From the NCBI GenBank assembly GCA_004764695.1, contig SMSO01000031.1:7311261-7375260 (forward strand): a DNA stretch of 64,000 nucleotides, written 5' to 3'. Below the pieces are notes generated by a model. It was not told the DNA's origin. It saw nothing but the letters and a program-made list of their open reading frames with translations, and did not search any database. The translations under genes and the position numbers were made by a program. Source of the stretch: Schizochytrium sp. TIO01. Taxonomy: Eukaryota > Sar > Bigyra > Thraustochytrida > Thraustochytriidae. This document shows positions 9,201 through 61,469 of this stretch, piece by piece. Numbering within the stretch: the stretch's first letter is position 1; each line of letters starts with the position of its first letter.

Positions 9201-11187
9201 TCACGAAGGCACTTCACGCGACCACGTTGAAATTGCGCACGGGCTTGCTTCAGAATATGTTAGCAAAAAAGTCCCATACGCCGAGTGGATGGTGGCAAGT
9301 TTACGTTTACCTCGGGAAACTGCGGCATTTTCGGAATTGGTTCGTCTAGGTTGCTGGTTTATAAAGATGGATCAAAATCAACAAAACGCTTTGCTGCAAG
9401 CTCTTTGGCAACAAGGTACCATGTGTTCACGTTCACATCTCCAGGGAACCTTGGAGGAGTCAGGATTCTCAAGCTCCCTACTGTTGGAGAGTTGCATATA
9501 TGCTCAGGCCTTTGTTGTAGCTGAAGGTGAGCGAGATTCTGATGACCAACTGGGTACTAATACAAGTCAGATAGTTTCCCTCAAACATGGCCAATTGGTT
9601 CTGGCAGCTCTTCGAGAGAATGGTGGATATTCAGAGTCAACTGAAAAAGTAGAGGCCCGACGGCTTGCACAAAAAGTCCTACAGCACGTTTATTTATGGC
9701 ATTTCATTCGTGAACAAGGTGGGCTACATGAATATCTTGAAACAATGTATCAAATGGATGTTGATGCTCGTGGGTATCTCAAATTCGGAGATTTTTGCAA
9801 TGCGTTAGGGTGTGGAAATGATGATGCCTTTGCCAGTGCAATATTCTCCTCTAGAGAAAACTCACTAGGCCAATCAGGAGGTATGAATACTGACTACGGA
9901 GACATTTACTATGAGTCAATGATTTTGGAGGCGATAGAGTCGCTATTTCCCAATTCAACGCAAATGGAATTAATAACACATGCAATGCTCAGAAGAGCTA
10001 TGAAGCGATGCCTCCTTGATCATGGAGAATCTTTACTAGATCTGTGTTCATCACATGACTCCGAAAATACAGGATATATTTCAATACACGAGCTTTGCTG
10101 GGAACTTGGCAAGTTAGGCATTCCACTAAGAGCAGAAGGTCCAGAGGCACTCTCAATTTTACGAAAATACTCAACCAAAAGCGGGAAGATAATTATGAGG
10201 AGCTCTGAAGACACCCCACTGTCTCAAATAGATTATGAAACGCTTCTTCTAGATACAGCATTGATTGATGTGAAGGGTAATATTTCCCTTGAGGAGGAAA
10301 TCAAAAGAAACTTTGCCATCAGCGTGCTGAATCGCACTCTTCGTTCGCAGAACCAGTACGATGGAATATTACATTTAATATCCCTAGAGCTTCCGCAACA
10401 AGCCCATGACCTTAGCACATTGGTTTGCGATAAAACTCAACTGGCACGTTTGCTCAACAAGGTTTTCAATTTGATGCCACAAGGGCAGCACCAAATCCAG
10501 CAACTACAAATGTTGAAAGTTCAGCATGTTCTAGATTGTATTGTGGACTCATTTGCTAAAGATGAGAGGGGGCGTTCAAACATTAACCTTGGAGAACTAG
10601 TTGAAAAACTCGATAGAAACAGCAAGGACCAAGCAAGGTATGTATTGCGGTGCATCCTCGAAAAGGCTCGAACTACGTCAATCAATCTCTACGAGGTGTT
10701 TCGTACAATGGACGGTGATTTGGATGGAACTATATCTGTACGAATGCTAAACCAAGCTTTGGAGGCAATAGGGCTGCCAAGTTTGGATGAAAGTGCTTTA
10801 GATCTCTTGGGTGCTTTTACTTCTGAGAGCGTTGTGGCATATGAACTATTACTGGAACGTGCCATTGAATTTGTTTACGATAAACCTCACGAGGGAATGA
10901 GTGCTGATCGTCTGAGGGCAATTGTATGCCGAATCAACGCAATCATAATTCGGAATGGGCATGCAACGAGTGAACGAGGGGTTTTTGCTACCTTAGTGGA
11001 CGAAACAGAGTCCGATAGAAGTGATGCTGGCCTAAGCAATTGGGATCTCTTTTTCACACTCCGAAAGTACAAAGTAGTCGCTATCGAGACAATCGAGGAC
11101 TTGGATTTTGCTCTTGCCCACCTACTCCCGCATAAAATCGCCCCCATAGAAATCGGTATGGAAGATTGGCTTGTTCTAACACGGTGA
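3292..11187 (+). CDS. SH3 / SAM / EF-hand scaffold protein, frame interrupted near the 5' end
   Basis: A large scaffold-type gene read in three segments: 3292 to about 3828 (frame 1), about 3828-4212 (frame 3) and 4213-11187 (frame 1). Joined, it gives about 2,631 residues. The start ATG at 3292 sits in a good context (ACCATGG). An SH3-like domain lies at nt 3385-3570 (WWIGYNAQGKRGAFPDECV). Next come a beta-rich region, a Ser/Pro/Lys-rich linker, and two SAM domains (nt 5870-6115 and 6270-6480) with a possible third SAM-like segment at 5550-5770. A coiled coil spans 7530-7680, and two poly-Ser tracts follow. The C-terminal third is helical with EF-hand-like loops; the clearest is DGDLDGTISVRM near 10710, with weaker ones near 9120, 9750 and 10060. 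SH3 and SAM domains suggest a cytoskeletal or signalling adaptor that may sense calcium. The domain calls are solid for SAM and fair for SH3 and EF-hand. No ortholog name is proposed. Confidence 0.8.
3782..3849 (+). other. First frame change: candidate 68-nt GT-AG intron or A-run indel
   Basis: The 5' frame ends at TAG 3847-3849 while the next segment is open in another frame. Two explanations fit. In the first, an intron from GTATGA (3782) to ATAG (3849) joins the frames exactly. In the second, one A is missing from the A5 run at 3829-3833; restoring it gives a continuous PGKKWQNW reading. The skipped stretch has no in-frame stop before its last three bases and reads like coding sequence, which slightly favours the indel. 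Confidence 0.45.
4149..4212 (+). other. Second frame change: candidate 64-nt GT-AG intron or A-run indel
   Basis: The frame returns to that of the 5' segment. Removing GTGAGC...AAAAAAG (4149-4212) as an intron restores it exactly at codon boundaries. So does deleting one A from the A6 run at 4206-4211, which gives DPKKVEEASL. The interval is itself open in the preceding frame and looks coding (VSLFLVPVKDVIEEFL), which favours a homopolymer error. Confidence 0.45.
7924..7962 (+). repeat. Poly-serine tract 1 in the SH3/SAM scaffold gene
   Basis: About 13 near-consecutive Ser codons with mixed TCA/TCT/TCC/TCG usage, so it is not a pure triplet microsatellite. Acidic residues (DESS) follow. It is likely a flexible linker. 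Confidence 0.85.
8098..8160 (+). repeat. Poly-serine tract 2 in the SH3/SAM scaffold gene
   Basis: A second Ser-rich run broken by single Pro and Thr residues, encoded mostly by TCT/TCC in a pyrimidine-rich strand. With tract 1 it brackets a short acidic, Trp-containing segment. Confidence 0.85.
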
Positions 11188-43100: not shown

Positions 43101-43927
43101 ATGAGCGTGCTTCACTTGCTCCGTAGCTTGCATAAACTATTAAAACTTGGCAGGCTAAAGAAACTGGAGAATCAACATAAGTGATCCCCGATGATCACGA
43201 CGAACTGTTTTATCTGTCAGGAAGCACTGCTATTTCAGGGTGTGGGGAGCTATAATTAACTATCGGAGTGAACGTCGCGACTCGGACAATGGGCACTTGT
43301 AATTCCTGAAAAAAAAAAAGTTCCCGAAACCTCTAGCTACGCGAGCGAGGGTGCGGCCCAAGCATGATTTCCAACAAGTTCGCTATGAGGATAGCCTAAC
43401 AATAAGGCGAGTTCAACTCAAGCTTTGTCGGACTCGCGCTAGATACGTTTCTCTCTAGTTAAGTCTTCTGCCTATTCAGCCCGAGAATCATCTGGGTACA
43501 TACACATATGGAATTGATTGCAAGAAAATAGAAAGAGGAAAAAAAAAGCTTATATTTTCTCTCTCTTCTGTATAATCAATCAATCACAGTGGTTTCCTTT
43601 CAATTTTAGTTTTTTGTTCAAGTCTACTTTCTGTTCATTCTCAAAGTTCTCACTTTCATAATGTTTTCATGCACTTGAATTGTTGCTTCGTGAGAGAGCC
43701 CATCTCTGCAAGTTGCGTACTGCGTACAGATGAAAGCAGAGAGGCCCGAGTCAGGCAAACCCAAATCTGCAACTTCGAAGCCTCTGACTCGCGCGGGCTA
43801 GCAAAGAGGCTCGTCGGTGTACAAAGAGCAGGGCCTACCTAGTCGGGTATGGCGGCAGCGCGTGCAGAAACGTGCTCGATTCTGGTTCACAAGAAGAAGA
43901 GACGAAGCGAGACTGGCAAGCCGAACA
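37198..43927. other. Gene-poor A+T-rich interval
   Basis: This 6.7 kb interval is the largest gap in the window, upstream of both flanking genes (GT90 on minus, NACHT/WD40 on plus). Open stretches stay short and switch frame and strand; none carries a recognisable family motif. The longest unlisted readings are 38599-38835 (+, 79 codons without ATG) and a minus-strand stretch around 39520-39765; both are compatible with chance in A+T-rich DNA. It contains a CAAA array at 42245, AAAG-rich tracts near 40140-40185, and scattered TAGGTA/TACCTA hexamers. No terminal inverted repeats, reverse transcriptase or transposase motif was seen. Unrecognised multi-exon genes or non-coding RNAs cannot be excluded. 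Confidence 0.5.
42245..42271. repeat. (CAAA)n tetranucleotide repeat
   Basis: Six tandem AAAC/CAAA units in the gene-poor interval. Confidence 0.9.
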
Positions 43928-46900
43928 ATGCTTCCGTCCCGCAATAGCCTGCCGCGGCCACGGTCGGCTGATGAGAGCGACCATCGACAGCGTCGCGAGT
44001 CTGCATTCCGAAGACTGTCAATGCGTGCATTCTCTAAGACCTTTATGCATAAGAAGCGTCTCGCCAAAGAGGCAAGGGGGGCAAAAAAATCTGGGTCGAC
44101 AGAAACCACGCGCGATCAGTTTGCAGAGCTCAGAGCTGTGCAAGAAGCAGTGAATTACTATCCCCAGCCCCTGCCAAATGACGTTTCTTCAATTCGTTAC
44201 AAAGGTCGCGACCCTGCGGTTCGAGCTCGTATGATGTCAGGTGAGAGTATTGCGGTTCCAAAGGACCTCGAGCTTGAGCCACGTGTTGTACGCATGTTTG
44301 TAAGTGGGACTTTCCGCGATATGCGGTTTGAGCGCGATTGTATCGTCGGTTTGTTGAACCCGCGCATCAGTAAATACTGCCGAATTCATGGTCTTCACTT
44401 CCAATGCCAGGACATGCGGTGGGCAGTGTCTGAACTGACACATGATTCTCGTGAACTGTCGCTGCAAGAGCTTCGGCGCTGCAAAGCACGCTCCTTTGCG
44501 TTTAACTTCGTGGGCATAGTGGGTAACAGGTACGGTTTCTGTCCATTCCCAACTATTATCGAAGCAAGTATGTTCGAAAAGTTGTACAGAGAGGCCAGTA
44601 ACCCCAGCCTTTTAGACACGTGGTTCATCCTAGACGAAAACCGTGTTCCTGCTATGTATGTACTTCGACGTGTCGAGAAGGTTCTCAGCCGTACCTTGAA
44701 GTATCGTATGAATGCGGTAAATGCCGAGTGGCACGAATCATTTGAGGCAATTCGCAACGAGCTTTGCCAAGCAGCTCGTCGCCTTGAAATTGAAGGAGTT
44801 TTCTCTGCAGAGGAAAGCGCTGTTTTTGAACGCGGGGTTGTTGAAGAAGAAATAGAGGAAGGCGTTTTCACGCAAAGTGATCACCACCAAACTCACATCA
44901 TCATCCGTGAGCTTCAACATGACGATTCTGGTGATGCAGAGGACGGTGAAAATCAAATGATAGATCCCATTTATTTTGACTCCGAGGAGACTGATCCTGA
45001 TGGATATGCCCGCGCTCGATTGCAAAACCTTAAAGAGCGCTGTAATGAAATAGTACACGAGAGTAACCGCCAAACCTATTACGTGCCATTTGAGGACGGC
45101 CTTGATCCTGTTAGCAACCCATCTCATAGCAGTTACTTGCGCCAGATGTTGGAAGATCTCGAGCATCGAATCATCGGCAGTATTCGACACAATTTGCAAA
45201 ACGGTGTCTTTCGACGCGACCCTCTTTTTGAGACTGTCCGAGCTCACGCAATGCGCGCTGCACATTGTAGCAAAGAATTTGTTGGCCGGCAGGAGCTCCT
45301 GCACTCAATTCGTAATAATCGTAGTCGCCTTGTGTTTGTCACAGGAACTGCAGGCTCTGGTAAGACCTTTGCTCTTGGTAAAGTTTCTGCCAATGTTGCT
45401 AGCGCTGTGGCGAAGCAACGCGCTGAAAATGTTGTGGTTGCTCGCTTCTTAGGGGCCACGCATGAATCTTACACAAGCTCCAGTCTACTTCGAGGAATTT
45501 ACGAGCAGATTCAGAGCGTATACTGTACGTCTTCTGGGGTCACACCTCCAGAGATTCCAGTACGCCCAAAGGACGTGCGGTATGCCCTTAAAGACTTCTT
45601 ATCACTTGCCACTGAAGATGCCCCACTCATGCTTATCATTGATGGCATTGATCAACTCCTTGACGGGGATGACTCGTGGGTGCCTCTTGCTGCGGAGGAT
45701 TTACCTCAGCATGTACGTCTAATTATCTCTGCACGTGCTGGTACTGCTCCTGCACGTACATTTCTTCGCTCTGCTGAAGCTGGGAATTCAGCTCTTGTGC
45801 GAACACCTACATTCACAGGTGAGGAGGCAGAATCATTTTTAGATAGTTGGCTATCGGCTGATTCTCGCGCACTTCAACCCAAACAAAAAAGCACAATTCT
45901 TCGTTCTGTTATAGGATTACGTGATCCTTCTCCTTTAGCTTTGCGAATTCTTTATGAAGAATCAAAGCACTTAAACTCTCTGGACGCACCGATGGAGGAG
46001 TTTCTTGGTGTGAAGGAAATCGACGAAATTCTGGCACATTGGTTTGCACGACTTGAGGCTGAACATGGTGCTCTCTTTGTGCAGACAACACTGGCGTTGA
46101 TTACGGCTTCATTCACTGGTCTCGAGGAGACAGAGCTCGAAGATCTTCTTTCTCTTCGTGACGACCTTCTCGCCGAGGCATATACGGATTTTGTCCCTCC
46201 CTTAGCACGATTTCCTCAACGAAGAATTTTTAAGCTTCTTCGTGATCTTCGTCCTTTCATGTGGTTGGGTAATTGGGCACATCGTGAAGTCCATCGCACT
46301 GCCCTCGATCGTTATGATTCGAAAATCATTTCAGCGTATCGTCTCATTGCAGACTACTTCTCAGCAGACTCCCCTAGTCTTTTGGAGCGCCCACCGTGCA
46401 AGACCGAGGTGAATGGAGAGCAGTGGCTGATTGCACAGAACCGCTTCCCAGAGGCCCAACCGTTTCAGTTTGAGACCGGTGCGACTAATCTCCGGAAGTT
46501 CTTTGAGCTTCCTTCAGCTCTGCAAAGTGTAGGTGATGCCGAGGCCCTTGAAAAGCTTGTATGTGACCTTCAGTTCATTCGTATTGGGTTCGAAACTGCT
46601 CCTGCGGATCTCCTCTATTGGGTTCGGCAACCAGAAACTTTCCGCAGCTCCAACATTGCGCGTGCTATCGGCCAAAGCTTGACAGCATATAGTAGTGCCC
46701 CAGACCAGCTCGAAGAGATTCTGTGGCTTCGTCTGGCTAATGTTCTGGAACCTGGAGATGACCTGCTTCGTGAGCTTCATGAAGCACGCATGAAAACCCC
46801 TGGTTTGCATGCACTCACTCCTTTGCGCAATATTCCCACGCATCGGCGGCTCGAAACCCAACAAGGGATTGGAGCTACATCGAGTATGAATGATGCTTCA

Positions 46901-49090
46901 AGATCACGTCCAAGTGTTGCTTCCTCTCAAAGCTCCTCTCGTCTGCGATCGGCTATTCGCAAAAGCCTTAAAAAGAAGAGATTCTCCCTCAAAGAAGGTT
47001 TACCCATGCGCGAGTCTAGTTACTCTGGGTCGTTGACAGCAGACGGTAACCCCTTTGCGCCGGCAAGAGTCACAACTCTTCATGGTCACTATTCTCCTGT
47101 TCTTTATGCTGACAACTATACAGACCCGAAAACAAGGGATGAACATCTTGTTACAATGTCCGCAGAATCCATACGAATCTGGAATGTTGAACATAAAGAG
47201 CTCATTCAAGTTATCAATTCTCCAGCAGGAGTCCGTAAGAACAGTGATGCGCTGGGCGGCAATCAAGTTGATGAAGAGGACAGTGACAACACTGATGGAA
47301 AATTTAATCGCGTTGTGGCTTATGTCGAGCCTGGTGGTGGCCCTCGCGTTCTTGTGGGAATGGATAGGGACTTATTGCTTTATGCGGTCACCACAGGTGT
47401 ACCCATGCGGAAGATCAACAATGCTCACGACGCCGCAATTAGCGATCTGGGCCTCATGGAAGCTTCAAATGGCGAAATTGACTTCGTAAGTGCGAGTTTT
47501 GATGGAACACTCAAAGTCTGGCGAGGACTGACAGGCCAGCGTATGCGGTTGATCAGCTGTGAAGCAGGTCCAATTCTAGATATTGACCTATTTATTGACA
47601 CCGACGCTGGTGATTGGCAAGCACTCACCGTCCATGAGCACGAAATTCGCGTTTACAATGTATCTGGTGGTGAGCATCCGAATATATCTTTGTCTGTTGA
47701 CGGCGAAACGTTTTGTACTGCAGTGTCTTACTTCCATGAAGGCACATTGTTTGCATTATCCTGTGCTGAAAATAACGGTTCCTTACGAATGTGGGATCTC
47801 AAAAAGGGTATCATGCTTCACTCCTTGGATAACGCCGAGCACATCAATAATCCGTTCACTTGTTTAGATATCTTTGAGGATGTTGCAAGTGCCAGTCTTC
47901 GATGCGTGACAGGAGACACTGAAGGATTCATCAAGATTTGGGATTTGACTGAGCCTAAGCTTCAATATGTAGCGGAGGTACATGATTCACCGGTGATTGA
48001 CGTTACCTATCTAGAACTTGATAAAGAGTTCTGGGTAGCATCTTGCGCAAGCGATGGGCAGGTGCATTTGTCCAGTGGGTTCGCAGAAGCAAATGTGCAA
48101 CCGTCCAGTGCATCGAGTCTGAGCGTAGAGGATTTTGGTCCTGCATCGTGTCTTTCTTCCTATACCGATGGAAGAAAGGGTCGTTGGCAAGTTGCAAGTG
48201 TTCATGATTCCCAAGTCCTTATCCGGGATCCTATTTCCTCAGCCATTAATATGCGCTGGGAAACGGGTGCTAAAGTGAACTGCATTGCCTTTGAGGACAT
48301 CCCTCGATCACGAAATGCTCGCTGCGTTGCGGGCCTGATCACTGGAGCCGTTTCTGTGTGGTCTATTCCTACAACGAACTCTTTTTCTGTTCAAGTTCAC
48401 GAGGGCCAAACTTTAGGTGTTTGCGTCTTTGATCCACGTAGTTCTGATGATGCTGCCTTCGCCAGTGCTGGCGAAGATGGTATTATTGCTGTACATAATA
48501 TTGCAAACGGGGCACCGCTTTGCCGCTGGCACGCTCACGACGTGGCCATTCGATTTGTTTTACCCTTCCGTGAAGATCATACGCCTAAATTGCTTAGCGG
48601 AGACTGTGCAGGCAACTTAAGTGTGTGGGACTTTGAAAAAACACGAAAGACTCTATCGCAGGTTCTTTCGCGCAAGGTATCACCAAGTTTGAACTTTGAA
48701 AATAGCAAACCTGTGCGATCTGTCTCAACTTACACTGAGTATAACAGTCGTCAACCTTATGCGATCATTGCTAATGGAGGCAACAATGTTCGTGTCATTG
48801 CTCTGGATGGGCGAGAACGTATATTGCGAGGCGGCCATTCTGCACGTGTTCGTTCAGTGAGTAGCTTTGCAGACCCGACGACGAATGAGCAGTGCATTAT
48901 ATCTGCGGGCAAGGACAAGACTATTTGTGTATGGAGTTCCAAGGGAATTGTGATAAGTAGGTATGTTTTTGATCAACCCATCAAGACCATCAGTACCCAC
49001 CGATTGCCCAATCAGGCTTACATCATGGTCAGTCTTGATGATGGCCAGCTTGTTGTACTTCGCCATATCCCTGCTGAAAGCAACTCTTAA
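43928..49090 (+). CDS. NWD1/TEP1-like DUF4062-NACHT-type NTPase-WD40 protein
   Basis: A 1,720-residue protein starting at the first in-frame ATG, 43928. The basic, Ser-rich N-terminus is followed by a DUF4062-type domain at about 118-225 (VRMFVSGTFRDMRFERD, DMRWAVSEL, FNFVGIVGNRYGFCPFP, then a DENRVPAMYV segment). This arrangement matches NWD1, NPHP3 and TEP1 proteins. A STAND/NACHT-type NTPase follows. Its Walker A is GTAGSGKT at about residue 473 (nt 45344-45367) and its Walker B-like LMLIIDGIDQLL lies near 568. The C-terminal third (about 1045-1718) is a WD40 array with signatures such as GTLKVWR, GSLRMWDL, GFIKIWDL, GNLSVWDF and KTICVW, enough for about two propellers. Family logic predicts an ATP-switch protein that assembles on ligand binding by the propeller. 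The ligand and output are unknown. Key nucleotide-binding residues are present. Confidence 0.88.
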   Translation: MLPSRNSLPRPRSADESDHRQRRESAFRRLSMRAFSKTFMHKKRLAKEARGAKKSGSTETTRDQFAELRAVQEAVNYYPQPLPNDVSSIRYKGRDPAVRARMMSGESIAVPKDLELEPRVVRMFVSGTFRDMRFERDCIVGLLNPRISKYCRIHGLHFQCQDMRWAVSELTHDSRELSLQELRRCKARSFAFNFVGIVGNRYGFCPFPTIIEASMFEKLYREASNPSLLDTWFILDENRVPAMYVLRRVEKVLSRTLKYRMNAVNAEWHESFEAIRNELCQAARRLEIEGVFSAEESAVFERGVVEEEIEEGVFTQSDHHQTHIIIRELQHDDSGDAEDGENQMIDPIYFDSEETDPDGYARARLQNLKERCNEIVHESNRQTYYVPFEDGLDPVSNPSHSSYLRQMLEDLEHRIIGSIRHNLQNGVFRRDPLFETVRAHAMRAAHCSKEFVGRQELLHSIRNNRSRLVFVTGTAGSGKTFALGKVSANVASAVAKQRAENVVVARFLGATHESYTSSSLLRGIYEQIQSVYCTSSGVTPPEIPVRPKDVRYALKDFLSLATEDAPLMLIIDGIDQLLDGDDSWVPLAAEDLPQHVRLIISARAGTAPARTFLRSAEAGNSALVRTPTFTGEEAESFLDSWLSADSRALQPKQKSTILRSVIGLRDPSPLALRILYEESKHLNSLDAPMEEFLGVKEIDEILAHWFARLEAEHGALFVQTTLALITASFTGLEETELEDLLSLRDDLLAEAYTDFVPPLARFPQRRIFKLLRDLRPFMWLGNWAHREVHRTALDRYDSKIISAYRLIADYFSADSPSLLERPPCKTEVNGEQWLIAQNRFPEAQPFQFETGATNLRKFFELPSALQSVGDAEALEKLVCDLQFIRIGFETAPADLLYWVRQPETFRSSNIARAIGQSLTAYSSAPDQLEEILWLRLANVLEPGDDLLRELHEARMKTPGLHALTPLRNIPTHRRLETQQGIGATSSMNDASRSRPSVASSQSSSRLRSAIRKSLKKKRFSLKEGLPMRESSYSGSLTADGNPFAPARVTTLHGHYSPVLYADNYTDPKTRDEHLVTMSAESIRIWNVEHKELIQVINSPAGVRKNSDALGGNQVDEEDSDNTDGKFNRVVAYVEPGGGPRVLVGMDRDLLLYAVTTGVPMRKINNAHDAAISDLGLMEASNGEIDFVSASFDGTLKVWRGLTGQRMRLISCEAGPILDIDLFIDTDAGDWQALTVHEHEIRVYNVSGGEHPNISLSVDGETFCTAVSYFHEGTLFALSCAENNGSLRMWDLKKGIMLHSLDNAEHINNPFTCLDIFEDVASASLRCVTGDTEGFIKIWDLTEPKLQYVAEVHDSPVIDVTYLELDKEFWVASCASDGQVHLSSGFAEANVQPSSASSLSVEDFGPASCLSSYTDGRKGRWQVASVHDSQVLIRDPISSAINMRWETGAKVNCIAFEDIPRSRNARCVAGLITGAVSVWSIPTTNSFSVQVHEGQTLGVCVFDPRSSDDAAFASAGEDGIIAVHNIANGAPLCRWHAHDVAIRFVLPFREDHTPKLLSGDCAGNLSVWDFEKTRKTLSQVLSRKVSPSLNFENSKPVRSVSTYTEYNSRQPYAIIANGGNNVRVIALDGRERILRGGHSARVRSVSSFADPTTNEQCIISAGKDKTICVWSSKGIVISRYVFDQPIKTISTHRLPNQAYIMVSLDDGQLVVLRHIPAESNS

Positions 49091-50052: not shown

Positions 50053-53000
50053 ATGTGGGGCGCATGCAAGCTCGGCCCCCGACACTGGGAAGAGGCGTTT
50101 CTCGCTGTGGACTGGTCTCAACGATGCCTGCGCAGCTTTAGCTCTGAGGAAGCTGCGGAGGCTTGCCTCAACTCCCTCCACGGCTCCACTTCTCTCTTCG
50201 CCAACTCCGAGGACCTTGCCCCCCTACTAAGTCCAGCTTCCAGTGTAGTGGACTCCGGACGCGATGGGAGGATTGTGAGCAGCCTTGTGAGTGTGGACGT
50301 CACCCTTGGTGACGCACAGGTTCGCGAAGAGTGTAGTACTGTGACTTGTGGCGACTACCACGATGTCATCATTATTTCTTCAAGCGAAGACTCTGCTGCT
50401 CCGTGCGTGCTGGGCGTGGAGTCCGGTGCTTCTGAGGCCTGGCATGAGTGGATTCGCAACGCGGCTGCTGTGTGCACATTCTTGTTCCTTTGCCAGCGTG
50501 AGGGTCTGAGCGCTGACCTCGCGGAGTCCGCCTGCAGGCCTTTGAAGGAGGCCGCTCAAGGAGGCGTCTTCGAGCTTGAGCTCGACGGTCCAGACTTCTT
50601 CGAAACTCCTACGACCACAAGAGCCGTTGCAATGCTACTCACAGAAAATACCTCTGTCCTTCGGTGCACTGATTGTGTGCTCGAGGAGCGCCGTGCTGCA
50701 AGGCTCTTCGAGGCAGTGCAGAGATGCCGAGCTTTGCGAAGTGCGCAATTCATTGGTTGTGGAATTGGACCTCTCTCGGTAAGACAACTATGTAGAGCGC
50801 TAATTGGAGTTGCACAGAATGTAGAAGAATTAGATCTTACGGATAACATTCTAGGGGATGATGGTGCGGCGGCTCTTGCGGAGACTGTGGCGTGTCTGCC
50901 AAGACTTCGGGACCTTAGACTAGCGAAAAACCAAATTACTTACGTGGGGGCTCGGGCTCTGGCTGCAAGGATTGGGAGAGCATCGAATCTGAGGTCATTG
51001 GATCTCAGCGAGAACCCTATTGGTGATTTTGGTATGGAAGCAGTTGCAAGATCACTAGAAGGCTTACCATATTTGGAGACGTTAGTGCTACATTCTTGCA
51101 CGGCGAACGCGGAGGGAACGTTGCAGATGCTTGTGCAGGGTCTTATTGAAAATCGAAACTCTTCGGCGGTCGGAGGACTTGCAGTTCTTGATTTGCAGGA
51201 TAATATGTTTGCAGCAGCGGCTATTAAAAGATTTCTCACACAGTGTAGCAGCTTGGGGGCTCCACAGATGATTAAACTTGGCCGACGTCAGCGGGAGCGC
51301 ATGGTGATGGCGATGGATGGCGAGGACGAATATATGCGCCGGGGGCAGGTGGTAGACCTTGGCTATATTCCTGCTAAGGTGGATAATAGAGATCAGCATT
51401 GGCCATCTTCGTCATCTCCGAACCAAGGATCTCCTAAGAATGCCGATGCCCTAGCTGCGGCAGCAATGAGCCGTCTAGAAATAGTCTTTGGCCAAGAAAT
51501 TGCTCCATTCCGTGTGTTGAGCGCAGTTTCCAATCTTCTTGGTATCTATGCCGGTCAGGCTCGCATTGAACCACATGAAACGATTGACTCAAGGGCACAA
51601 TTCCAGGTTGCAACACTTGAATTTATGTGTGATACGCCAGAGCAGAGTCAGCAATGTGCTGAAAATCTTATAACCCACTTTCGTGATGGAAACTCCTTGC
51701 TCGCTTTGCTTCATATTGTGGACGTCCGTAGACCACGATATGAGGGCCAAAGGAGCCCCGCTACAGGCCCTCGGGTGGCTACCAGCGTTTCGCCTCTCAG
51801 TTCAGAACGAGACGACGATTCTCGTTCACCAGTGTCTGTCGTCTTACGTCCTTCGTCTGAAGAAGGAAGCTTTATTAGTAGCCCGAAGGATCGGACCCTC
51901 ATTCACTTGGCGCGCAAAGCGCCTCGAGCCGAACAAGAGCAGAGTTTGTTAGATGCAGTGAGGGCCCTTTTGGTCATTGAAGACCTTGGGCGAAACTCCG
52001 ATAGCATTAAAGCCCAATTGCGGACAATTGCAGCAATGTTTGCACGCCTTGATCTCTTTGTACCTTCAGAAAAGTCTGAAATTCAAAGGTTTCTACTAGA
52101 GGCCAAGCTCGCTCGTGCCGACCCTGAAGAAGCTGTGCGGCCACTTTCGCCTTTGGACTCTTGTATCGGTCCAACCTTAGCATGGGCTTTGGCTCGCCTT
52201 GCGCAGTGCACGCCCTCGGATGCTCTTGTTCTGCGTGCATATGTTGCTGCATTGTTTGGAGACGTGGAGCGCAGTATTGCTGCCGCTGAACAAGGAAAGT
52301 TTGCGCTCGGTTTGATGCCTTCGTTGTCACAACTCACAAGCTTTGAAAGTGCCGCTTTGCAAGCCGCGGCAAATGCACAGGATACGGAGACGTTCTCTCT
52401 CATTTTGTCCCAAGACTTAAGCGAAGAGGAAGTCTCTGCCGGGACCATTCGTCTGGCTGGAATTGTGCACCATGACCTGTCTGCAAAATCAGCTGTTCTT
52501 CGTCCCAGAAATACTGAGATCCGAGAGCTAAAACTTTACGAGGAGGATCCCGCCTCGTTTGCTGGACTTGTTGTAGAGTTTCTAAGATTTGAGAGACTTA
52601 ACTCAAGGTGGTCTCCACGCGAACTGCGACTCCAGTATAGTTCGGATGTGCGCTCACTTCCCATCACCCGCCCCTTGCCGCAAATTCGCCGGGACCTTGC
52701 AACAATAAGCTCTTGGGATCGTGATGAAGTATCGGAGGATACCTATGATACACCATCAAGGTTCTTCAAATCTGCCAGCGAGGCAAAAGTAGAGCGTGCG
52801 TATGTCAGCGCAGCTCGCCGCATGAGTGCATTGCTCTTGCAAGCGAGTGGGGACTCGCGGCGGGTTGCGGATGACCCCCAGGGCTACGGTGCAGCTCATG
52901 AAGCTTTTGGGATTGCCTATGCCAATCGGGAAATTGGCATGGTGGATGAACTTTTAGCGCAACTCATATGTCAGACTATGTGTAATCCAACTTTGCGGTC

Positions 53001-54648
53001 TCAAGAGACATATTGGAAACTCATGGTTGTTGCTCTTCGTATTCTTGAACCTAGTACCGAGTTATGCGATGTCCTGTTAGAGGTTCTAGAACATCGTATG
53101 AATCGTGAGGTTGACCCTCACTATATGATTCGCTGGGCAACAGATGCGCTAGAGGAACGTCTCACAATCGTTGCGACGGATCGTAAAGTACGTCGCTTGT
53201 TTGCTTCAGATGCCTCCCTGCGTCTTGATCTATTACGCCAAACGCTTAACGAGACCGAGGCAATGGATATTGATATTCACTGCTGGAATGGAACGGGTGC
53301 TAAAGTCCGCGTGGCGCCTTTCACTTCATTTGAGGATCTTCTTGCTGAAGTCAGTTCTCTTGCCGACCGTAGACTTCGACGACACCCAGGCAAATCTTTT
53401 CCAAAATCAACGCTGCAAGATAACACCGCGCGCTGGAAAGATTTCTGTTTTACTTATAGCGATGCACAAGAAGAGGTCGAGGTACTCGCATGGCAAAGTG
53501 ATGCATATTGGTGGAGATGGAAGCTTGCAGTAGCAGAAGTACTTCAACAAGGAGAAAATTTGTCTAATGGCAACCTCAACAACAATGCGAGCCAAGACGG
53601 TAGCAAGTATGGTGACAGCAAGCATGTAGATAGCGATCACAGTGGGGCAATCCGTATTCGTTTGGAATCTTATATCTGTGCTCCAACATTATGGTTCTAT
53701 TCTTCTTCAGACGTCCTGAGAGCCGAGCTTTTATACTGGCAACGTATGGCTTTCTTATTACGAGGTGAAATGTGTACTAGTAATCCTGAAGCGCTCGGCT
53801 ATGTAGCTAGCTTGGCAGCTTGCGTGCAGATATCAGGAGGAATCGAACAGTGGTTGGACCTTGACGCATCGGACCGTGCGCGCGTTAGCCTTGGTCACGT
53901 TCCAAAAGCTGTCCGCCGCCGTGTTGGCAAGCGCTCATCTAATCCATGGATGACTCGCTTTCAACACGCTGTAGATCGCTTCTCGAGCCATGTCACGCAG
54001 TCAATGGCCCAAGCTATTGTTGCTGGTAGCGAGGCGCCGACGCAAGCTGATCTCCAACGAGCCATGCTTGCTTACACAGAAACTTGGCCATTAGCCAATG
54101 GCCTTGTCTTTCGCGATGTAAAACCTATTTTGTTACATCGTGCAGGAAAACAAGTTTCATTGGAGGATTTTGGGGAAACAAAACATCTTCGTGCACGCTT
54201 TGTACTGAATGCTAAAGGGCTATTTTTACTTGCTCTTACGCGAGATGCTCAGACAACGAGGGCCATCGCTCTTTTGTGGTGGACACCTATTGATGAGCTT
54301 ATGCGGGTTCAGCTAGTTGACACCAACACATTGCATTTGTCAACGCGGAATATGGACCAATTCGAGTGTCAAATGGAATCGCCACGCCAGTTGTATAAGG
54401 CGATTGTCAGCCAGTGCACAACGAACATGTGCAGTGGAAATCCCCATGTTGCTACTGCTTTACAAATGGTGGAGTTTGCGAACCACTTTAGAGTGCTTCC
54501 CTGGCCTCCTCCTCCGCCGCCGTTGTATGACCCACGCGGTGACCCTGTTGAGCTTGATCAAGGGCTTGAAAAACCAATGGATCTTTCAACTACAGCGACT
54601 GTTCTTGCAGAGAGAGTTCTAGCACCATCCTCAGGCTTGGCACACTAG
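50053..54648 (+). CDS. LRR-MyTH4-FERM protein
   Basis: A 1,531-residue, single-exon gene. Residues about 223-403 form ribonuclease-inhibitor-type leucine-rich repeats (LDLTDNILGDDGAAALAE, LRLAKNQITYVGARALAA, LDLSENPIGDFGMEAVAR). The central part is not recognised. A MyTH4 domain spans about 906-1036 (VDELLAQLICQTMCNP, then a Trp and LEP). A FERM region spans about 1046-1463, and its last lobe has a PH-like strand pattern (GLFLLALTRDAQTT). A short poly-Pro motif (PWPPPPPPLYDP) lies near the C-terminus. MyTH4-FERM units of unconventional myosins and related proteins bind microtubules and membrane or adhesion cargo. No motor domain is present, so this is probably an adaptor between cytoskeleton and partners held by the LRR. 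The gene follows the NACHT/WD40 gene in the same direction. Confidence 0.82.
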   Translation: MWGACKLGPRHWEEAFLAVDWSQRCLRSFSSEEAAEACLNSLHGSTSLFANSEDLAPLLSPASSVVDSGRDGRIVSSLVSVDVTLGDAQVREECSTVTCGDYHDVIIISSSEDSAAPCVLGVESGASEAWHEWIRNAAAVCTFLFLCQREGLSADLAESACRPLKEAAQGGVFELELDGPDFFETPTTTRAVAMLLTENTSVLRCTDCVLEERRAARLFEAVQRCRALRSAQFIGCGIGPLSVRQLCRALIGVAQNVEELDLTDNILGDDGAAALAETVACLPRLRDLRLAKNQITYVGARALAARIGRASNLRSLDLSENPIGDFGMEAVARSLEGLPYLETLVLHSCTANAEGTLQMLVQGLIENRNSSAVGGLAVLDLQDNMFAAAAIKRFLTQCSSLGAPQMIKLGRRQRERMVMAMDGEDEYMRRGQVVDLGYIPAKVDNRDQHWPSSSSPNQGSPKNADALAAAAMSRLEIVFGQEIAPFRVLSAVSNLLGIYAGQARIEPHETIDSRAQFQVATLEFMCDTPEQSQQCAENLITHFRDGNSLLALLHIVDVRRPRYEGQRSPATGPRVATSVSPLSSERDDDSRSPVSVVLRPSSEEGSFISSPKDRTLIHLARKAPRAEQEQSLLDAVRALLVIEDLGRNSDSIKAQLRTIAAMFARLDLFVPSEKSEIQRFLLEAKLARADPEEAVRPLSPLDSCIGPTLAWALARLAQCTPSDALVLRAYVAALFGDVERSIAAAEQGKFALGLMPSLSQLTSFESAALQAAANAQDTETFSLILSQDLSEEEVSAGTIRLAGIVHHDLSAKSAVLRPRNTEIRELKLYEEDPASFAGLVVEFLRFERLNSRWSPRELRLQYSSDVRSLPITRPLPQIRRDLATISSWDRDEVSEDTYDTPSRFFKSASEAKVERAYVSAARRMSALLLQASGDSRRVADDPQGYGAAHEAFGIAYANREIGMVDELLAQLICQTMCNPTLRSQETYWKLMVVALRILEPSTELCDVLLEVLEHRMNREVDPHYMIRWATDALEERLTIVATDRKVRRLFASDASLRLDLLRQTLNETEAMDIDIHCWNGTGAKVRVAPFTSFEDLLAEVSSLADRRLRRHPGKSFPKSTLQDNTARWKDFCFTYSDAQEEVEVLAWQSDAYWWRWKLAVAEVLQQGENLSNGNLNNNASQDGSKYGDSKHVDSDHSGAIRIRLESYICAPTLWFYSSSDVLRAELLYWQRMAFLLRGEMCTSNPEALGYVASLAACVQISGGIEQWLDLDASDRARVSLGHVPKAVRRRVGKRSSNPWMTRFQHAVDRFSSHVTQSMAQAIVAGSEAPTQADLQRAMLAYTETWPLANGLVFRDVKPILLHRAGKQVSLEDFGETKHLRARFVLNAKGLFLLALTRDAQTTRAIALLWWTPIDELMRVQLVDTNTLHLSTRNMDQFECQMESPRQLYKAIVSQCTTNMCSGNPHVATALQMVEFANHFRVLPWPPPPPPLYDPRGDPVELDQGLEKPMDLSTTATVLAERVLAPSSGLAH

Positions 54649-55952: not shown

Positions 55953-58900
55953 CTACTGATTAATTTGTGGAGATTGAAAAGCTAATGTAGGACTTTGATC
56001 ACTTTGGCGGGAAGGTTCAGGTGCGACTTTCCGCCCCGAGTTTCTTCGGGTAGAAGCAATTCGAATCGAATCAGTGGCAAGAGCAGCATTACCCAGCGAT
56101 GCAATACGCTTGGTAATTGTTGACAGCATGGTGCTGCCAACTTCTGGAGCTAAACTTGAATTTCTTCCACTGTTTAGCATTGAGCTCACTAGAGACTGAT
56201 TACTACTTTCCCTCTGATACAAGCTCATCTTGGATTGGTCAAAGCTTGTATTCAGGTTCATGTTCATCATTTGAGCCTCGAATCGCTCAAAATTGTCAGC
56301 ACCTTCGAGCTCGATCTGGTGAACACTATTGATGGATGCTAGCCAATCATTGAATGAAATAAAACCTAATTCAGAAGAATCAGCCTCGAACACCATCTCT
56401 TGAGCTGCCTCTGGGCTTACCTCAATATCCAAGAATTCTAACCAAGCTCGTTGAATTTGTTGGGCGGTGATTCCGATACCTTGTAAGGCAAACGACTTCC
56501 ACTTTTCTTCTAGTGGTTTTGCATGGTTCTCGCTTTCCAGAAGTTTCTGCAATTTTTCTTGCATAGTTTTATCAGTTCCAAGAATGAGCTTATAGGTCGC
56601 TTCTACTTCAATTAGCAAACGCTGCTTCTTCACTGCGGAAGCAATTATGGAAAGAAAACTCGTGAAGGACAGGGCAGGTTCCAAATAACCTCGTGCATCC
56701 GTGATCTGCCATTCCTCCATTACAGTAATGAGCATCTTGTCTTCTAATATTAAACCTGCATCTTCAAGCATTGCAGAAAGATTGGAAAGAGTAATACAAC
56801 CTTCAGGATACACCTCATCGACACGCTCACTTTTAGTAGACTTGTTGTACACGTGGCTGTGCCTGTGCATAGGAGCAGTAGAGTACTGCTCAAAGACTTT
56901 CCGAATAACGCTCAAGTGGGAAGAGTGCAGAGGGTAGAACGTCAAATGGGCAAAAATATTCAAGAAGTCGGACTCTGATACGTGCATGTCAGCTTTCCAT
57001 TCTCCATCAATTTGAGGAGAGACAGCCCCACCTCTGGACGCTGTTGAGTCAAGAGTATTTTCCGCGATGAGACTTTCATCAGGTGCTAATGTGGCCTCAG
57101 AAAGAGCTTTCTGCGTTAAGGTTGGATCGCTTGGGGCTTGAGTATCAACACGAAGCAATCTGTAAGTCTGAGCTCCAAGGTTCTTGAGTTTTCCTCCTAC
57201 CGTAGTCGTGGCATTCCCTGGTTGTTGCGCAGCGTCCTTTTCTTTTATAAGTTGCTGGGCCCTTTGGCGAATCAAAAACCAAATAATATGCGTAGACTCG
57301 AAGATAGAATGAAGAGATGCTCTGGAAAGTTTAAGTGCAATGAGGTTTTCTGATTGAACAATTACGTCTGCACTGCGCTCGAAACGCCTGGAAAAGAAGG
57401 CAATCTCACCCAACACATATCCTCCCTTGCTACTATCAAAGTTCATTCGATGGGTGTGGATTACACCATTGTCCATCTTTATGCGCACATTTACATCTCC
57501 CGAGAGAACAACCAGAAGGAAATCCCCAACATCACCTTGTTTGAAAATGTAGCTATCTTGTTTGAACTCCACCAACTCGGACTCGGCAGCTACGCGTGAA
57601 ATAAGATATTGATCAGCCTGAACACTTTCTTTAAAAAGATCAATTGAAGCCAGCGCCCGGTAACGAGCACCAAAGGGAGCCTTCTGTTGTTGCTGAATCA
57701 CGCTCTCTAGCTTGCGCCTGCCAGGCAGCCTGAATCTTTTTTCTTGTTCTATCTTCACGCGGATCGCACGATCTTGAAGCTGACGGCATTTGTGATGTTC
57801 TTTTGGCAGAAGTCTTTGTACCATGTGTCGAAAGACCTCAATGACGAGAACTTGCTTGGAGAGAACTTCTACAGAAGATGAAAATACTCCAATTTCATTG
57901 GGTGGAAGAAAAACGAGGTCCTCCCCAAATATAATTGGACTCTGCGAAGCATGCATAGTTCGTTTCGACTCCCCTTTTCGTACGTTAACCATCCCATCGG
58001 CAACAACAAGCATACTATTCACAGGACTTCCCTCTGTACAGACAAATTCACCCTTATGAAACAGCAGAAGCTCAGAGCGCTCGGCAATTTTCTCGAGGAA
58101 ACCTGGGAAAGAAACCTCAAGGTCTGCAAAGACGGCAGTGTTTGACAAGAACAGGGTAATAATCTGAAGCTGATCGGTCCTGCTAACCTTGGTCGTATCA
58201 ATTCTGCGCATGAGGTCATCCTTACCAACACTGTGCAAAAAGTTAGCAATTGCAAAATGAGGATTTTCATGATTTGTCGTAACATCTGTTCGTTCAGCTC
58301 CACGAATTTTGCTATGCAAAAGTAGCGCTGCGTCCTTTTGGCTAATGTAATAGCCCGTGTCTTGAAGCATATGAGCAATCTGGGTTGTCAAAACAAATTT
58401 GTCCGCAGCATAGCTGTTGAACACTGCGCGGCATTCAGCTTCTTGTTTCTTGCTCAGTCTACATGTAAACTCTGGTTGCAAATTTGGAGGTCCAAGCTGT
58501 TCAGAGTCGTGGCAATGAGCGTCATCCTCTTCCTCGCTGATGCCTCTATTTAGAACCATTTCTTGTCCTTTAAAATTAGCCCCGTACACAAAAAGGTTGA
58601 CGATATCAGGTCTTCCATGAAGAAGCTCCAAGCCGGTAGTGCTGTCTTCAAAGAGAGTGTCCAGGGATTGGCCTGTGCTTGATGAAGTCCCCGCTCTCAA
58701 AAGCTCCTCTTTTAGTAAATCCCGGTCCTCTTGCTTGGTAACAAGATCTACAATTGCATGAAGAAACGCAAGACCAGACTCCTGCACACGAACATCTTCT
58801 TCCTCCCCGAAAAGATGAGAACGTTGTAGTCGTTTCTGGCTTGTAATTTTCTCATTGCTATCCCTCTTCTCTGCGTTCTCATTTTCGACCTGCGCTGAAA

Positions 58901-61469
58901 TGTCTTCAGGTTCACTCTTTGAATCTCTAGCACCTACAAATAACATTGTGCTGAGAAGCTGACTTCCACGACGCACTGCATTTGACCCAGCAGAACTTCT
59001 TCTGCGATGGCGAGAAAGAGTTTTGAGTGATAGGTCCTTCGATAGATCTCGCGCGTCAGATGATATTGGGTCAAAGTGCTCTAGATCCGAAATTTCACGC
59101 TCTAACTTCAGGTTGGTCTGCCAATAGTGATGCAAAATTGTTTGCTGTAAGGCCATAAAAATATCTGGCCGGGAGGTCCGCAAGCGAGCGATTTCCTGAC
59201 GAGAAATAGCAACAACAGCGCTCTTCTCAGAGTCTGCGATAATCTTATAACGTTGAATTGCATTTGTAAAAACAGCCATTTCATTAATGTATGCGCCCCT
59301 AGCATATGATCGAATCTTACGAACGTTGCTATCCCGATCTGTGAACGAAGCTGAAAACTTTCCTCTTTGCACAATATACAAAGCCTCAGCTGGAGTTCCG
59401 GGTTCACAGAGGACCTGATTCTTTCGTAAGACAATCCGCTTCACAAATTTCCAAAGCTCATGTCCGTAACCAATGTCTTTTAGTACTTCTTCGAGGGCAT
59501 CATGCTTTGCCTTGTTTTTAGCTAGATCGTGTAATTTGATCACAGGACGGAACTCAAGCCATCGTGATCGTACCAGGTGACTCCACTCTAGGAGTTGCTC
59601 TTCAATCCACTCAACTCCTAAGTCAAGATGATCAAATACTGCTGCAACAATATGTAAGACGCCTTCACGAAGCATTGACCGGATAATGTTCTCTTGAATT
59701 CCTGTGAATACAATCATGATTCGCTGTTGATGCAATATATTGACAATATTTTGGAATACTCCTATACCACTAAAGTCAATGCCATATACATTAGACCAAT
59801 CGAAAATAATGTACCTGCAGCGAGCTACGCTAGGCAAGTGCTTTTGATCTGCTAGGAATGATTTTGTAAAATCAAGAATTTGTCCTGCAGATCCGAAGAA
59901 GATGTAATTTTGCATCTGCACGATTGAATAGCGCTTACTCAAATGCGTAAGTTTAGCAGAATCTTTAACGCTACGAACCACCTTCGACTCGTAGTCACGG
60001 CCCTCAAAAAATGCCTTAACAACACCAATTCGGCCATATGTTAATGCAAAAATTATTGCAGCCAGGATTATGCCAACAATTACAGCAACGAGCAAACTTG
60101 TGAGAGCATTCACAATGACAATCGTCCATATTGCAAGAAATTCCTCTCTTGAGACACGATTCCAGCTCTTAATAAGGTTATCAACCACAAAACCGAGACC
60201 AGCGTAGATCAAAAGGCCACCCAAGAAAAATCTTGGCAAATAGTTAATCAGAGGGAATCCCGAGAAAAACATTATGGCATTAAATATGCCTGTTACAACA
60301 CCTGGGATTCGGCTATGCACGTTGTGAGTGATGCCATAATTCAAAGCTGTGAATTTGGTTTGTGAAAACGCTGGTACACTGAGACCAAATAAAGCGCTGG
60401 CAAGACACGACATGCCAGCCGTCTTCATTTCGTTGTCAAACGGAAAGTCAAATCCTATTGCTTTTTTGGTACCCGCAAGCTTGAGTAAATAATCAATAGT
60501 GACAATAAGTAACATTGCAGGGAGATCTTTAAAGGAGTATAACAACGCTCCTCCATCAACCTCTTGGAGGTTGAATGTATGGTAAACTGATGAAAACTGT
60601 CCGTTGCTAAACTCAGGATAAAACCAGCCTCCAGCACATGATGATGATAAAGTTGTGTTTACACATTGATCTCTGGCAACCTCGAGAGACGTCCCACTTG
60701 CGAAAAGAAACCCATAAAATAATGCTAGCGGAACAGCAAGAGTGACACAGATAGCAAAAGCAGGTTGGCGAACATGGTAAGCTTTGATGAGGTACAGACC
60801 AAAGCCGATAGGTAACGCAGGTAGAAACAATTTCCAAAACATAAATTTGTATGGTTTCTTGTAGTAGATATCTCCGCATGTTGTGGTGAGAGCCGCTTTC
60901 ATCACTTTGTATCCAATGCAGGCGAGAAACCCATTGAGAAGTGACGCCGGGAGGTACTGCACGATTCGTGTGAGTTTGAAATGCCCCAGAGCTAAGAAGA
61001 TGCTACCAATCAAAAGTGAGCATATACAGATAGCAAGGATCACCGTTGGGAGTATGGATTCAATTTCTGGCATATGGTCAGTGTCTGAACCAAGCTGAAT
61101 AGACTCCACAATCAATGCGAAAAAAAGGGCTGGGTTAATATCTGGACCAGCAATGGATGCTTTACATCCAGAAAAGGCTGCGTAGAATGCGCATCCAATC
61201 ATAACACTGAAAATTTGCATGGAAACTCCAGCAGGCAGAAAGTCTTTGAGAACTGTAGTATCATCACGTTGATCTTTGAATATTAAAATAGCAAAAACCC
61301 AGCAGAACACAAACATCAACAGCCCATTGATCAAACCTGATATAATCAGAGTTGTAAGGCCTGGAGTGTGCCATGTTTGCACTGCAGAAATTCGAAGGTT
61401 GTCAAGCACATGTCCTGAGTAGATGTGAGATGGGCTGGGCTTGACGTTACCCGCGTTCATGCTTTTCAT
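55953..61469 (-). CDS. SulP-family anion transporter fused to STAS, three cNMP-binding domains and EF-hand-like segments
   Basis: An 1,838-residue protein starting at ATG 61469. The ORF reaches upstream only to a TTG, preceded by an in-frame TAA. Residues about 30-500 are a multi-pass SulP/SLC26 membrane domain (for example AGPDINPALFFAL and SGFPLINYLPRFFLGG). A STAS domain lies at about 505-635 (YIIFDWSNVYGIDFSGIGVF). Three cyclic-nucleotide-binding folds follow, at about 668-790, 1120-1225 and 1285-1410. The third has the clearest GE-containing phosphate-binding cassette (YVLGEIAFFSRRFERSADV), and the first reads YINEMAVF. EF-hand-like segments lie between domains 1 and 2 (about 1013-1053) and near the C-terminus (about 1510-1715; DSSELGFISFNDWL). 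It is predicted to move sulfate or another anion across a membrane, with cytosolic regulation by ligand binding. Whether these pockets bind cAMP/cGMP is uncertain. Confidence 0.87.
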   Translation of the reverse strand: MKSMNAGNVKPSPSHIYSGHVLDNLRISAVQTWHTPGLTTLIISGLINGLLMFVFCWVFAILIFKDQRDDTTVLKDFLPAGVSMQIFSVMIGCAFYAAFSGCKASIAGPDINPALFFALIVESIQLGSDTDHMPEIESILPTVILAICICSLLIGSIFLALGHFKLTRIVQYLPASLLNGFLACIGYKVMKAALTTTCGDIYYKKPYKFMFWKLFLPALPIGFGLYLIKAYHVRQPAFAICVTLAVPLALFYGFLFASGTSLEVARDQCVNTTLSSSCAGGWFYPEFSNGQFSSVYHTFNLQEVDGGALLYSFKDLPAMLLIVTIDYLLKLAGTKKAIGFDFPFDNEMKTAGMSCLASALFGLSVPAFSQTKFTALNYGITHNVHSRIPGVVTGIFNAIMFFSGFPLINYLPRFFLGGLLIYAGLGFVVDNLIKSWNRVSREEFLAIWTIVIVNALTSLLVAVIVGIILAAIIFALTYGRIGVVKAFFEGRDYESKVVRSVKDSAKLTHLSKRYSIVQMQNYIFFGSAGQILDFTKSFLADQKHLPSVARCRYIIFDWSNVYGIDFSGIGVFQNIVNILHQQRIMIVFTGIQENIIRSMLREGVLHIVAAVFDHLDLGVEWIEEQLLEWSHLVRSRWLEFRPVIKLHDLAKNKAKHDALEEVLKDIGYGHELWKFVKRIVLRKNQVLCEPGTPAEALYIVQRGKFSASFTDRDSNVRKIRSYARGAYINEMAVFTNAIQRYKIIADSEKSAVVAISRQEIARLRTSRPDIFMALQQTILHHYWQTNLKLEREISDLEHFDPISSDARDLSKDLSLKTLSRHRRRSSAGSNAVRRGSQLLSTMLFVGARDSKSEPEDISAQVENENAEKRDSNEKITSQKRLQRSHLFGEEEDVRVQESGLAFLHAIVDLVTKQEDRDLLKEELLRAGTSSSTGQSLDTLFEDSTTGLELLHGRPDIVNLFVYGANFKGQEMVLNRGISEEEDDAHCHDSEQLGPPNLQPEFTCRLSKKQEAECRAVFNSYAADKFVLTTQIAHMLQDTGYYISQKDAALLLHSKIRGAERTDVTTNHENPHFAIANFLHSVGKDDLMRRIDTTKVSRTDQLQIITLFLSNTAVFADLEVSFPGFLEKIAERSELLLFHKGEFVCTEGSPVNSMLVVADGMVNVRKGESKRTMHASQSPIIFGEDLVFLPPNEIGVFSSSVEVLSKQVLVIEVFRHMVQRLLPKEHHKCRQLQDRAIRVKIEQEKRFRLPGRRKLESVIQQQQKAPFGARYRALASIDLFKESVQADQYLISRVAAESELVEFKQDSYIFKQGDVGDFLLVVLSGDVNVRIKMDNGVIHTHRMNFDSSKGGYVLGEIAFFSRRFERSADVIVQSENLIALKLSRASLHSIFESTHIIWFLIRQRAQQLIKEKDAAQQPGNATTTVGGKLKNLGAQTYRLLRVDTQAPSDPTLTQKALSEATLAPDESLIAENTLDSTASRGGAVSPQIDGEWKADMHVSESDFLNIFAHLTFYPLHSSHLSVIRKVFEQYSTAPMHRHSHVYNKSTKSERVDEVYPEGCITLSNLSAMLEDAGLILEDKMLITVMEEWQITDARGYLEPALSFTSFLSIIASAVKKQRLLIEVEATYKLILGTDKTMQEKLQKLLESENHAKPLEEKWKSFALQGIGITAQQIQRAWLEFLDIEVSPEAAQEMVFEADSSELGFISFNDWLASINSVHQIELEGADNFERFEAQMMNMNLNTSFDQSKMSLYQRESSNQSLVSSMLNSGRNSSLAPEVGSTMLSTITKRIASLGNAALATDSIRIASTRRNSGRKVAPEPSRQSDQSPTLAFQSPQINQ

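What the first reader, a model, noticed from the sequence alone, without database searches (positions are those of the whole stretch)
55953..61469. SulP transporter carrying three cNMP-binding folds and EF-hand-like segments
SulP-STAS proteins with one cNMP domain are known in microbes and fungi. Three such folds plus EF-hand-like regions in a roughly 1,840-residue chain imply anion transport under both nucleotide and calcium control. The differing phosphate-binding cassettes suggest some domains no longer bind nucleotide.
Basis: partly seen in the sequence, partly recalled or inferred. Interest (0 to 1): 0.6.

Follow-up and report, generated by a model that had tools for sequence, protein, structure and literature searches.

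The report
SulP carrier with multi-sensor tail
A single-celled eukaryote (probably a thraustochytrid) encodes a membrane carrier of the sulfate-permease family whose long cytoplasmic tail holds three cyclic-nucleotide-binding folds, only one of which looks able to bind a ligand, and worn-down calcium-binding (EF-hand) folds; it is an unusually elaborated version of a known bacterial and fungal carrier type, not a new kind of machine.

Summary
Window 55953-61469 (-) is one intronless 1838-aa frame: SulP membrane domain, STAS, then three cNMP-binding folds (Pfam 52, 27-28 and 45 bits) and EF-hand-like segments. One EF-hand pair (residues ~1646-1715) is clearly supported (0 of 2000 shuffles; calmodulin, centrin and troponin C are its PDB matches); two others are suggestive only. 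The core (TM-STAS-cNMP1) belongs to a widespread bacterial SulP-STAS-cNMP family (tblastn E 6e-51; tree support 100/100), like cyanobacterial LtnT and yeast Vsb1 in architecture. A 43%-identical paralog in the same genome has the same core and EF-like tail but one cNMP fold, so the cNMP2-cNMP3 tandem is special to this gene. cNMP1 lost Gly and Arg of the cassette (as in the paralog), cNMP2 lost Arg, only cNMP3 keeps Gly-Glu...Arg-Ser-Ala. No EF loop fits the PROSITE pattern. So 'anion transport under nucleotide and calcium control' is only partly supported: one ligand site is plausible, calcium binding is doubtful, and the substrate is open (the canonical Gln position is Phe). New variant of a known kind; function inferred, not shown.

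The parts
55953..61469 (-). Complete coding frame, 1838 aa, intronless
60003..61367 (-). SulP membrane domain, residues ~35-489 (Pfam Sulfate_transp at 83-447); IAGPDxN motif of TM3 at 61131-61154; TM1 at 61293-61313 with Phe55 at the Gln/Asp substrate position
   Evidence: Pfam; alignment; hydropathy
59622..59930 (-). STAS domain, residues 514-616
   Evidence: Pfam 41.2 bits
59100..59492 (-). cNMP fold 1, residues ~660-790; cassette NEMAVFTNAIQRY at 59247-59285 (Gly lost, Arg shifted or lost)
   Evidence: Pfam 52.2 bits; aligned to bacterial SulP-cNMP
58215..58460 (-). EF-hand-like segment 1, residues ~1004-1085, suggestive only
   Evidence: Troponin C E 0.34; 104/2000 shuffles
57765..58127 (-). 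cNMP fold 2, residues ~1115-1235; cassette GEDLVFLPPNEIG at 57888-57926 (Arg lost)
   Evidence: Pfam 27.3-28.0 bits
57240..57647 (-). cNMP fold 3, residues ~1275-1410; intact cassette GEIAFFSRRFERSA at 57369-57410
   Evidence: Pfam 44.5 bits; PKA regulatory subunit E 0.0022
56634..56942 (-). EF-hand-like segment 2, residues ~1510-1612, suggestive only
   Evidence: EFCAB6 E 0.7; 18/2000 shuffles
56325..56534 (-). EF-hand pair 3, residues ~1646-1715; second loop DSSELGFISFND at 56346-56381
   Evidence: Profile vs calmodulin E 1.3e-5; 0/2000 shuffles

Best explanation
It is a SulP/SLC26-fold secondary carrier of the SulP-STAS-cNMP subfamily (the LtnT-like, Vsb1-like architecture), enlarged in a thraustochytrid-type protist by a tandem of two further cNMP folds that resembles the CNB-A/CNB-B pair of PKA and PKG, and flanked by EF-hand folds. 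Most likely working (inference): the membrane domain moves a small charged solute; STAS plus cNMP1 form the fixed dimerising and coupling collar that such carriers need, cNMP1 having lost its ligand; the cNMP2-cNMP3 pair is the sensor, with cNMP3 binding a cyclic nucleotide or a related purine ligand and the ligand-free cNMP2 passing on the movement; the EF-hand pairs mostly serve as helical scaffold or docking surface, with weak or no calcium binding. Shown: domain order, homology, cassette residues. Inferred: transport, ligand, coupling.
For: Domains. Core homology to bacterial SulP-STAS-cNMP over residues 37-780, E 6e-51, and a tree placing it with the other cNMP-SulPs of this genome (94/97) inside a group of bacterial ones (100/100), apart from ordinary SulPs. 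Paralog L014 (1691 aa) with same core and EF-like tail. Cassettes. Tandem model matches PKA-R/PKG CNB pairs, E 2e-6. EF pair. Essential role of the cNMP-like (RmlC-like) domain in Vsb1 without evident ligand: PMC13160679. Precedent for a carrier gated by a cNMP domain: SLC9C1, PMC6052114.
Against: No transport or binding data. The AlphaFold models are poor (pLDDT 38 and 49), with TM-scores of only 0.2-0.3, so the Foldseek match leans on sequence. cNMP2 sits at the Pfam cut-off. Whether relatives in other eukaryotes share the tandem could not be tested. Phe at the TM1 substrate position leaves open that it is not an active carrier.
Confidence: 0.55

Rival explanations
1. The whole tail is structural: all three cNMP folds and the EF-hands act as dimerisation and docking modules, as proposed for the RmlC-like domain of Vsb1, and the carrier senses no small ligand.
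For: Two of three cassettes are broken; no EF loop meets PS00018; Vsb1's domain is essential though ligand binding is thought unlikely (PMC13160679).
Against: cNMP3 keeps Gly-Glu...Arg-Ser-Ala with the CRP spacing, which a purely structural fold need not keep.
Confidence: 0.27
2. One reading: an anion carrier under joint cyclic-nucleotide and calcium control.
For: Intact cNMP3; a real EF-hand pair, whose loop in the paralog keeps Asp1, Ser3, Asn5, Gly6 and Asp12.
Against: In this protein the loop has Leu at position 5 and the partner loop is shortened; substrate site atypical for anion SulPs.
Confidence: 0.1
3. It is not a carrier but a receptor or scaffold that has kept a SulP body.
For: TM1 Pro and Gln are lost; a non-transporter role is discussed for Vsb1 (PMC13160679).
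Against: The membrane domain is well conserved with the paralog (43%) and with bacterial carriers, including the IAGPDxN motif.
Confidence: 0.08

Closest known systems
Bacterial SulP-STAS-cNMP proteins, including LtnT of Synechococcus elongatus (latent nitrate transport)
   Same: SulP membrane domain, STAS and one cNMP fold in the same order; IAGPDxN motif in Caballeronia and Kovacikia; E 6e-51 over residues 37-776
   Different: Bacterial frames found are about 720-890 aa with one cNMP fold and usually an intact cassette; no tandem and no EF-like tail. LtnT itself was not aligned here; its architecture is taken from PMC13160679
Vsb1 (YGR125W), yeast vacuolar cationic amino acid carrier
   Same: SulP, STAS, helical junction and a C-terminal RmlC/cNMP-like fold, whose loss abolishes activity (PMC13160679)
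   Different: One such fold, no EF-hands; Asp223 needed for cationic amino acids, where this protein has Phe55 by alignment to the canonical Gln position
C24 paralog in the same genome (L014:1473-6548 -)
   Same: 43% identity over SulP; same cNMP1 with broken cassette; homologous EF-like C-terminal tail
   Different: Only one cNMP fold; a long low-complexity linker instead of cNMP2-cNMP3; better EF loop
PKA regulatory subunit / PKG tandem CNB domains
   Same: Two cNMP folds in a row; Foldseek E 2e-6 on a weak model
   Different: No kinase partner in the chain; first fold lacks the Arg
SLC9C1, sperm Na+/H+ exchanger gated by a cNMP domain
   Same: A secondary carrier with a regulatory cNMP fold
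   Different: Unrelated carrier family, has a voltage sensor, single cNMP fold

Membership tests
SulP/SLC26 transporters | Sulfate_transp membrane domain | tested here: met
   65.9 bits, cut-off 23.2
SulP/SLC26 transporters | C-terminal STAS domain | tested here: met
   41.2 bits, cut-off 22.6
SulP/SLC26 transporters | 14 membrane helices in a 7+7 repeat | tested here: inconclusive
   About 12 hydrophobic stretches in residues 35-489, several overlapping or merged; no model of this part was made
SulP/SLC26 transporters | Pro-Gln and an aromatic residue in the TM1 substrate site (typical, not universal) | tested here: not met
   Val-Phe55 instead of Pro-Gln; aromatic Phe59 kept. The cNMP-bearing bacterial relatives lack the Gln too, so this marks the subfamily rather than exclusion from SulP
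SulP-STAS-cNMP subfamily | cNMP fold directly after STAS, and common descent | tested here: met
Vsb1 cationic amino acid carriers | Asp at the position of Asp223 | tested here: not met
   Phe55 at the equivalent of the canonical Gln; Vsb1 itself was not aligned, equivalence taken from PMC13160679
Cyclic-nucleotide-binding domain, ligand-competent | Gly-Glu...Arg phosphate cassette in cNMP3 | tested here: met
   GEIAFFSRRFERSA
Cyclic-nucleotide-binding domain, ligand-competent | Gly-Glu...Arg phosphate cassette in cNMP1 and cNMP2 | tested here: not met
   cNMP1 NE...QR; cNMP2 GE without Arg
EF-hand calcium-binding domain | Homology to EF-hand pairs | tested here: met
   Residues ~1646-1715 only
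EF-hand calcium-binding domain | Loop matching PS00018 | tested here: not met
   No match in this protein
Any of the above | Transport, ligand and calcium binding | not testable with these tools
   Needs bench work

The most novel reading that the evidence does not exclude
A secondary carrier in which a PKA/PKG-like tandem of cNMP folds, grafted behind an ancestral cNMP collar and combined with EF-hands, gates solute movement directly, so that transport is switched by a purine second messenger (and possibly calcium) without a kinase.
Probability: 0.2. Interest if true: 0.6.

Novelty: new variant of a known kind. Interest (0 to 1): 0.38.

Why it matters
Carriers are normally gated by their own substrate; carriers gated by a cyclic-nucleotide fold are few (SLC9C1 is the worked-out case). 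The SulP-STAS-cNMP family is widespread in bacteria, and yeast Vsb1 of like architecture has an essential cNMP-like domain of unknown purpose. A pair of paralogs with the same core, one with one cNMP fold and one with three, offers a natural comparison to test whether these domains sense a ligand or only hold the dimer together.

Tried and rejected
Structure prediction: the EF region alone gave pLDDT 38, unusable; cNMP2-cNMP3 with the window's own three folds as alignment gave 49, used only as support. A scan of viral contigs for cNMP relatives to deepen the alignment found none. The genome-contig scan with the paralog alignment found only one ordinary bacterial SulP; plasmid and whole-genome searches gave the cNMP-bearing relatives instead. 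Literature searches for SLC26/SulP with EF-hands in protists returned nothing relevant; the library holds open papers only, so this is no proof of absence. Considered and rejected: artefactual fusion of neighbouring genes (one unbroken 1838-codon frame; the paralog has the same two ends, SulP and EF-like tail, in one frame).

Full report
What is there. The minus strand of 55953-61469 carries one unbroken frame of 1838 codons from an ATG at 61469. The genome is eukaryotic, 64 Mb in 37 contigs. It holds a PfaA-type polyunsaturated fatty acid synthase in frames of 1031 and 2172 aa, the latter with several overlapping matches, near a divergent 2044-aa frame; from general knowledge this, with long intronless frames and GC near 45-50%, points to a thraustochytrid (Labyrinthulomycetes). 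That identification is an inference. Residue numbers below count from the ATG.

Domains. Pfam finds Sulfate_transp (65.9 bits), STAS (41.2) and three cNMP_binding stretches. Singly the cNMP folds score 52.2 (residues ~660-790), 27.3 (1115-1235) and 44.5 bits (1275-1410), the cut-off being 27.5. The second is thus borderline alone; in the whole-genome scan it scores 28.0. A low-confidence AlphaFold model of folds 2 and 3 together (pLDDT 49) still finds as its best solved structures the paired CNB domains of PKA regulatory subunits and PKG (best E 2e-6; 51 chains below 1e-3), among them trypanosome PKA subunits described as cAMP-independent; TM-scores are low (0.2-0.3), so this is support, not proof.

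EF-hands. Pfam finds none. The tail of this protein aligns with the tail of a paralog, and a profile of the two matches the C-terminal lobe of calmodulin with E 1.3e-5 over columns corresponding to residues ~1646-1715. The window segment alone matches centrin, troponin C and calmodulin (best E 0.005, nearly all of 37 matches EF-hand proteins). Against an EF-pair model made from this genome's own calmodulin-like proteins it beats all of 2000 shuffles. The segments at 1480-1612 and 985-1100 are reached by 18 and 104 of 2000 shuffles and have weak EFCAB6 and troponin C matches: suggestive. No loop in the protein fits PS00018; the best, DSSELGFISFND (1697-1708), has Leu in a ligand position, whereas the paralog's DLSSNGGVSYED departs only at position 7. 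The fold is real in one place; calcium binding in this copy is doubtful.

Kinship. The genome has ten SulP matches. The nearest to this one, on C24 (L014:1473-6548 -, 1691 aa), is 43% identical over SulP, has one cNMP fold and a homologous EF-like tail, with low-complexity sequence where this protein has folds 2 and 3. Two more (L011, L012) carry SulP, STAS and a cNMP fold or its beginning. Outside, tblastn against plasmids finds bacterial SulP-STAS-cNMP proteins covering residues 37-780 (Caballeronia E 6e-51; Gloeothece, Acaryochloris, Shinella, Ensifer), and a sample of 100 Pseudomonadota genomes shows many SulP frames of 700-890 aa, a number of them with a cNMP match behind. A tree of the SulP-STAS part puts the four eukaryotic cNMP-SulPs together (94/97) with eight bacterial ones (100/100), away from ordinary SulPs of the same genome. 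The core is therefore an old, widespread kind; the extra tandem is what is unusual. No bacterial frame seen was long enough for it. Other eukaryotes could not be searched.

Cassettes. Aligned to the bacterial GEMAxYxxxPRTA type, fold 1 reads NEMAVFTNAIQRY (Gly to Asn, Arg to Gln with an Arg one place on), and the paralog has NE and no Arg there: the loss probably predates their split. Fold 2 keeps GE but has no Arg (GEDLVFLPPNEIG). Fold 3, GEIAFFSRRFERSADV, keeps Gly-Glu and Arg-Ser-Ala with the ten-residue Glu-Arg spacing of E. coli CRP (CRP spacing from general knowledge). So at most one of three folds looks ligand-competent.

Substrate. TM1 of ordinary SulPs has Pro-Gln and an aromatic residue; here Val-Phe55 and Phe59. 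In yeast Vsb1 the position holds Asp223, needed for cationic amino acids (PMC13160679). Neither rule applies, so the substrate is open. The TM3 motif IAGPDxN is shared with the paralog, Caballeronia and Kovacikia.

How it most likely works. In Vsb1, deletion of the cNMP-like domain abolishes activity, and the authors favour a role in oligomerisation (PMC13160679); SLC9C1 shows that a carrier can be gated by a cNMP fold (PMC6052114). The simplest reading is that fold 1 is the ancestral, ligand-free collar; folds 2 and 3 form a later sensor pair with one live site; EF-hand folds are scaffold or docking parts. The first part is supported by sequence, the last two are inference. Whether the paralog lost folds 2 and 3 or this gene gained them was not settled.

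Context. Multi-cNMP and EF-hand proteins abound in this genome (113 cNMP matches; at least 149 EF-hand-pair matches), so recombining these parts into long chains is a habit of the organism; this lowers the surprise. Overall: a genuine, well-formed gene, a new variant of a known kind, of moderate interest.

Noticed in passing
L043:352-3348 (-), G000:C3:421707-422354: A protein with PP2C phosphatase, two cNMP folds and a protein kinase domain in one chain; one of the nearest relatives of the cNMP2-cNMP3 tandem in this genome.
   Followed up: partly
L014:1473-6548 (-), G000:C24: Paralog SulP-STAS-cNMP with an EF-like tail whose loop DLSSNGGVSYED is close to the canonical EF pattern, and a His/Ser/Gln-rich linker.
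   Followed up: yes
window 43817-49090 (+): 1757-aa frame with DUF4062, NACHT/NPHP3-type ATPase and WD40 propellers, NWD1/TEP1-like.
   Followed up: no
window 50053-54648 (+): 1531-aa frame with leucine-rich repeats and a MyTH4 domain; no myosin motor match was listed.
   Followed up: no
window 4213-11187 (+): 2324-aa frame with EF-hand matches near its C-terminus and long Ser-rich stretches.
   Followed up: no
window 13977-35078 (+): A 7033-aa uninterrupted frame; by eye it ends in a HECT-like region, not tested.
   Followed up: no
G000:C4:591651-617209: PfaA-type polyunsaturated fatty acid synthase with repeated matches and a divergently placed 2044-aa frame; used to guess the organism.
   Followed up: partly
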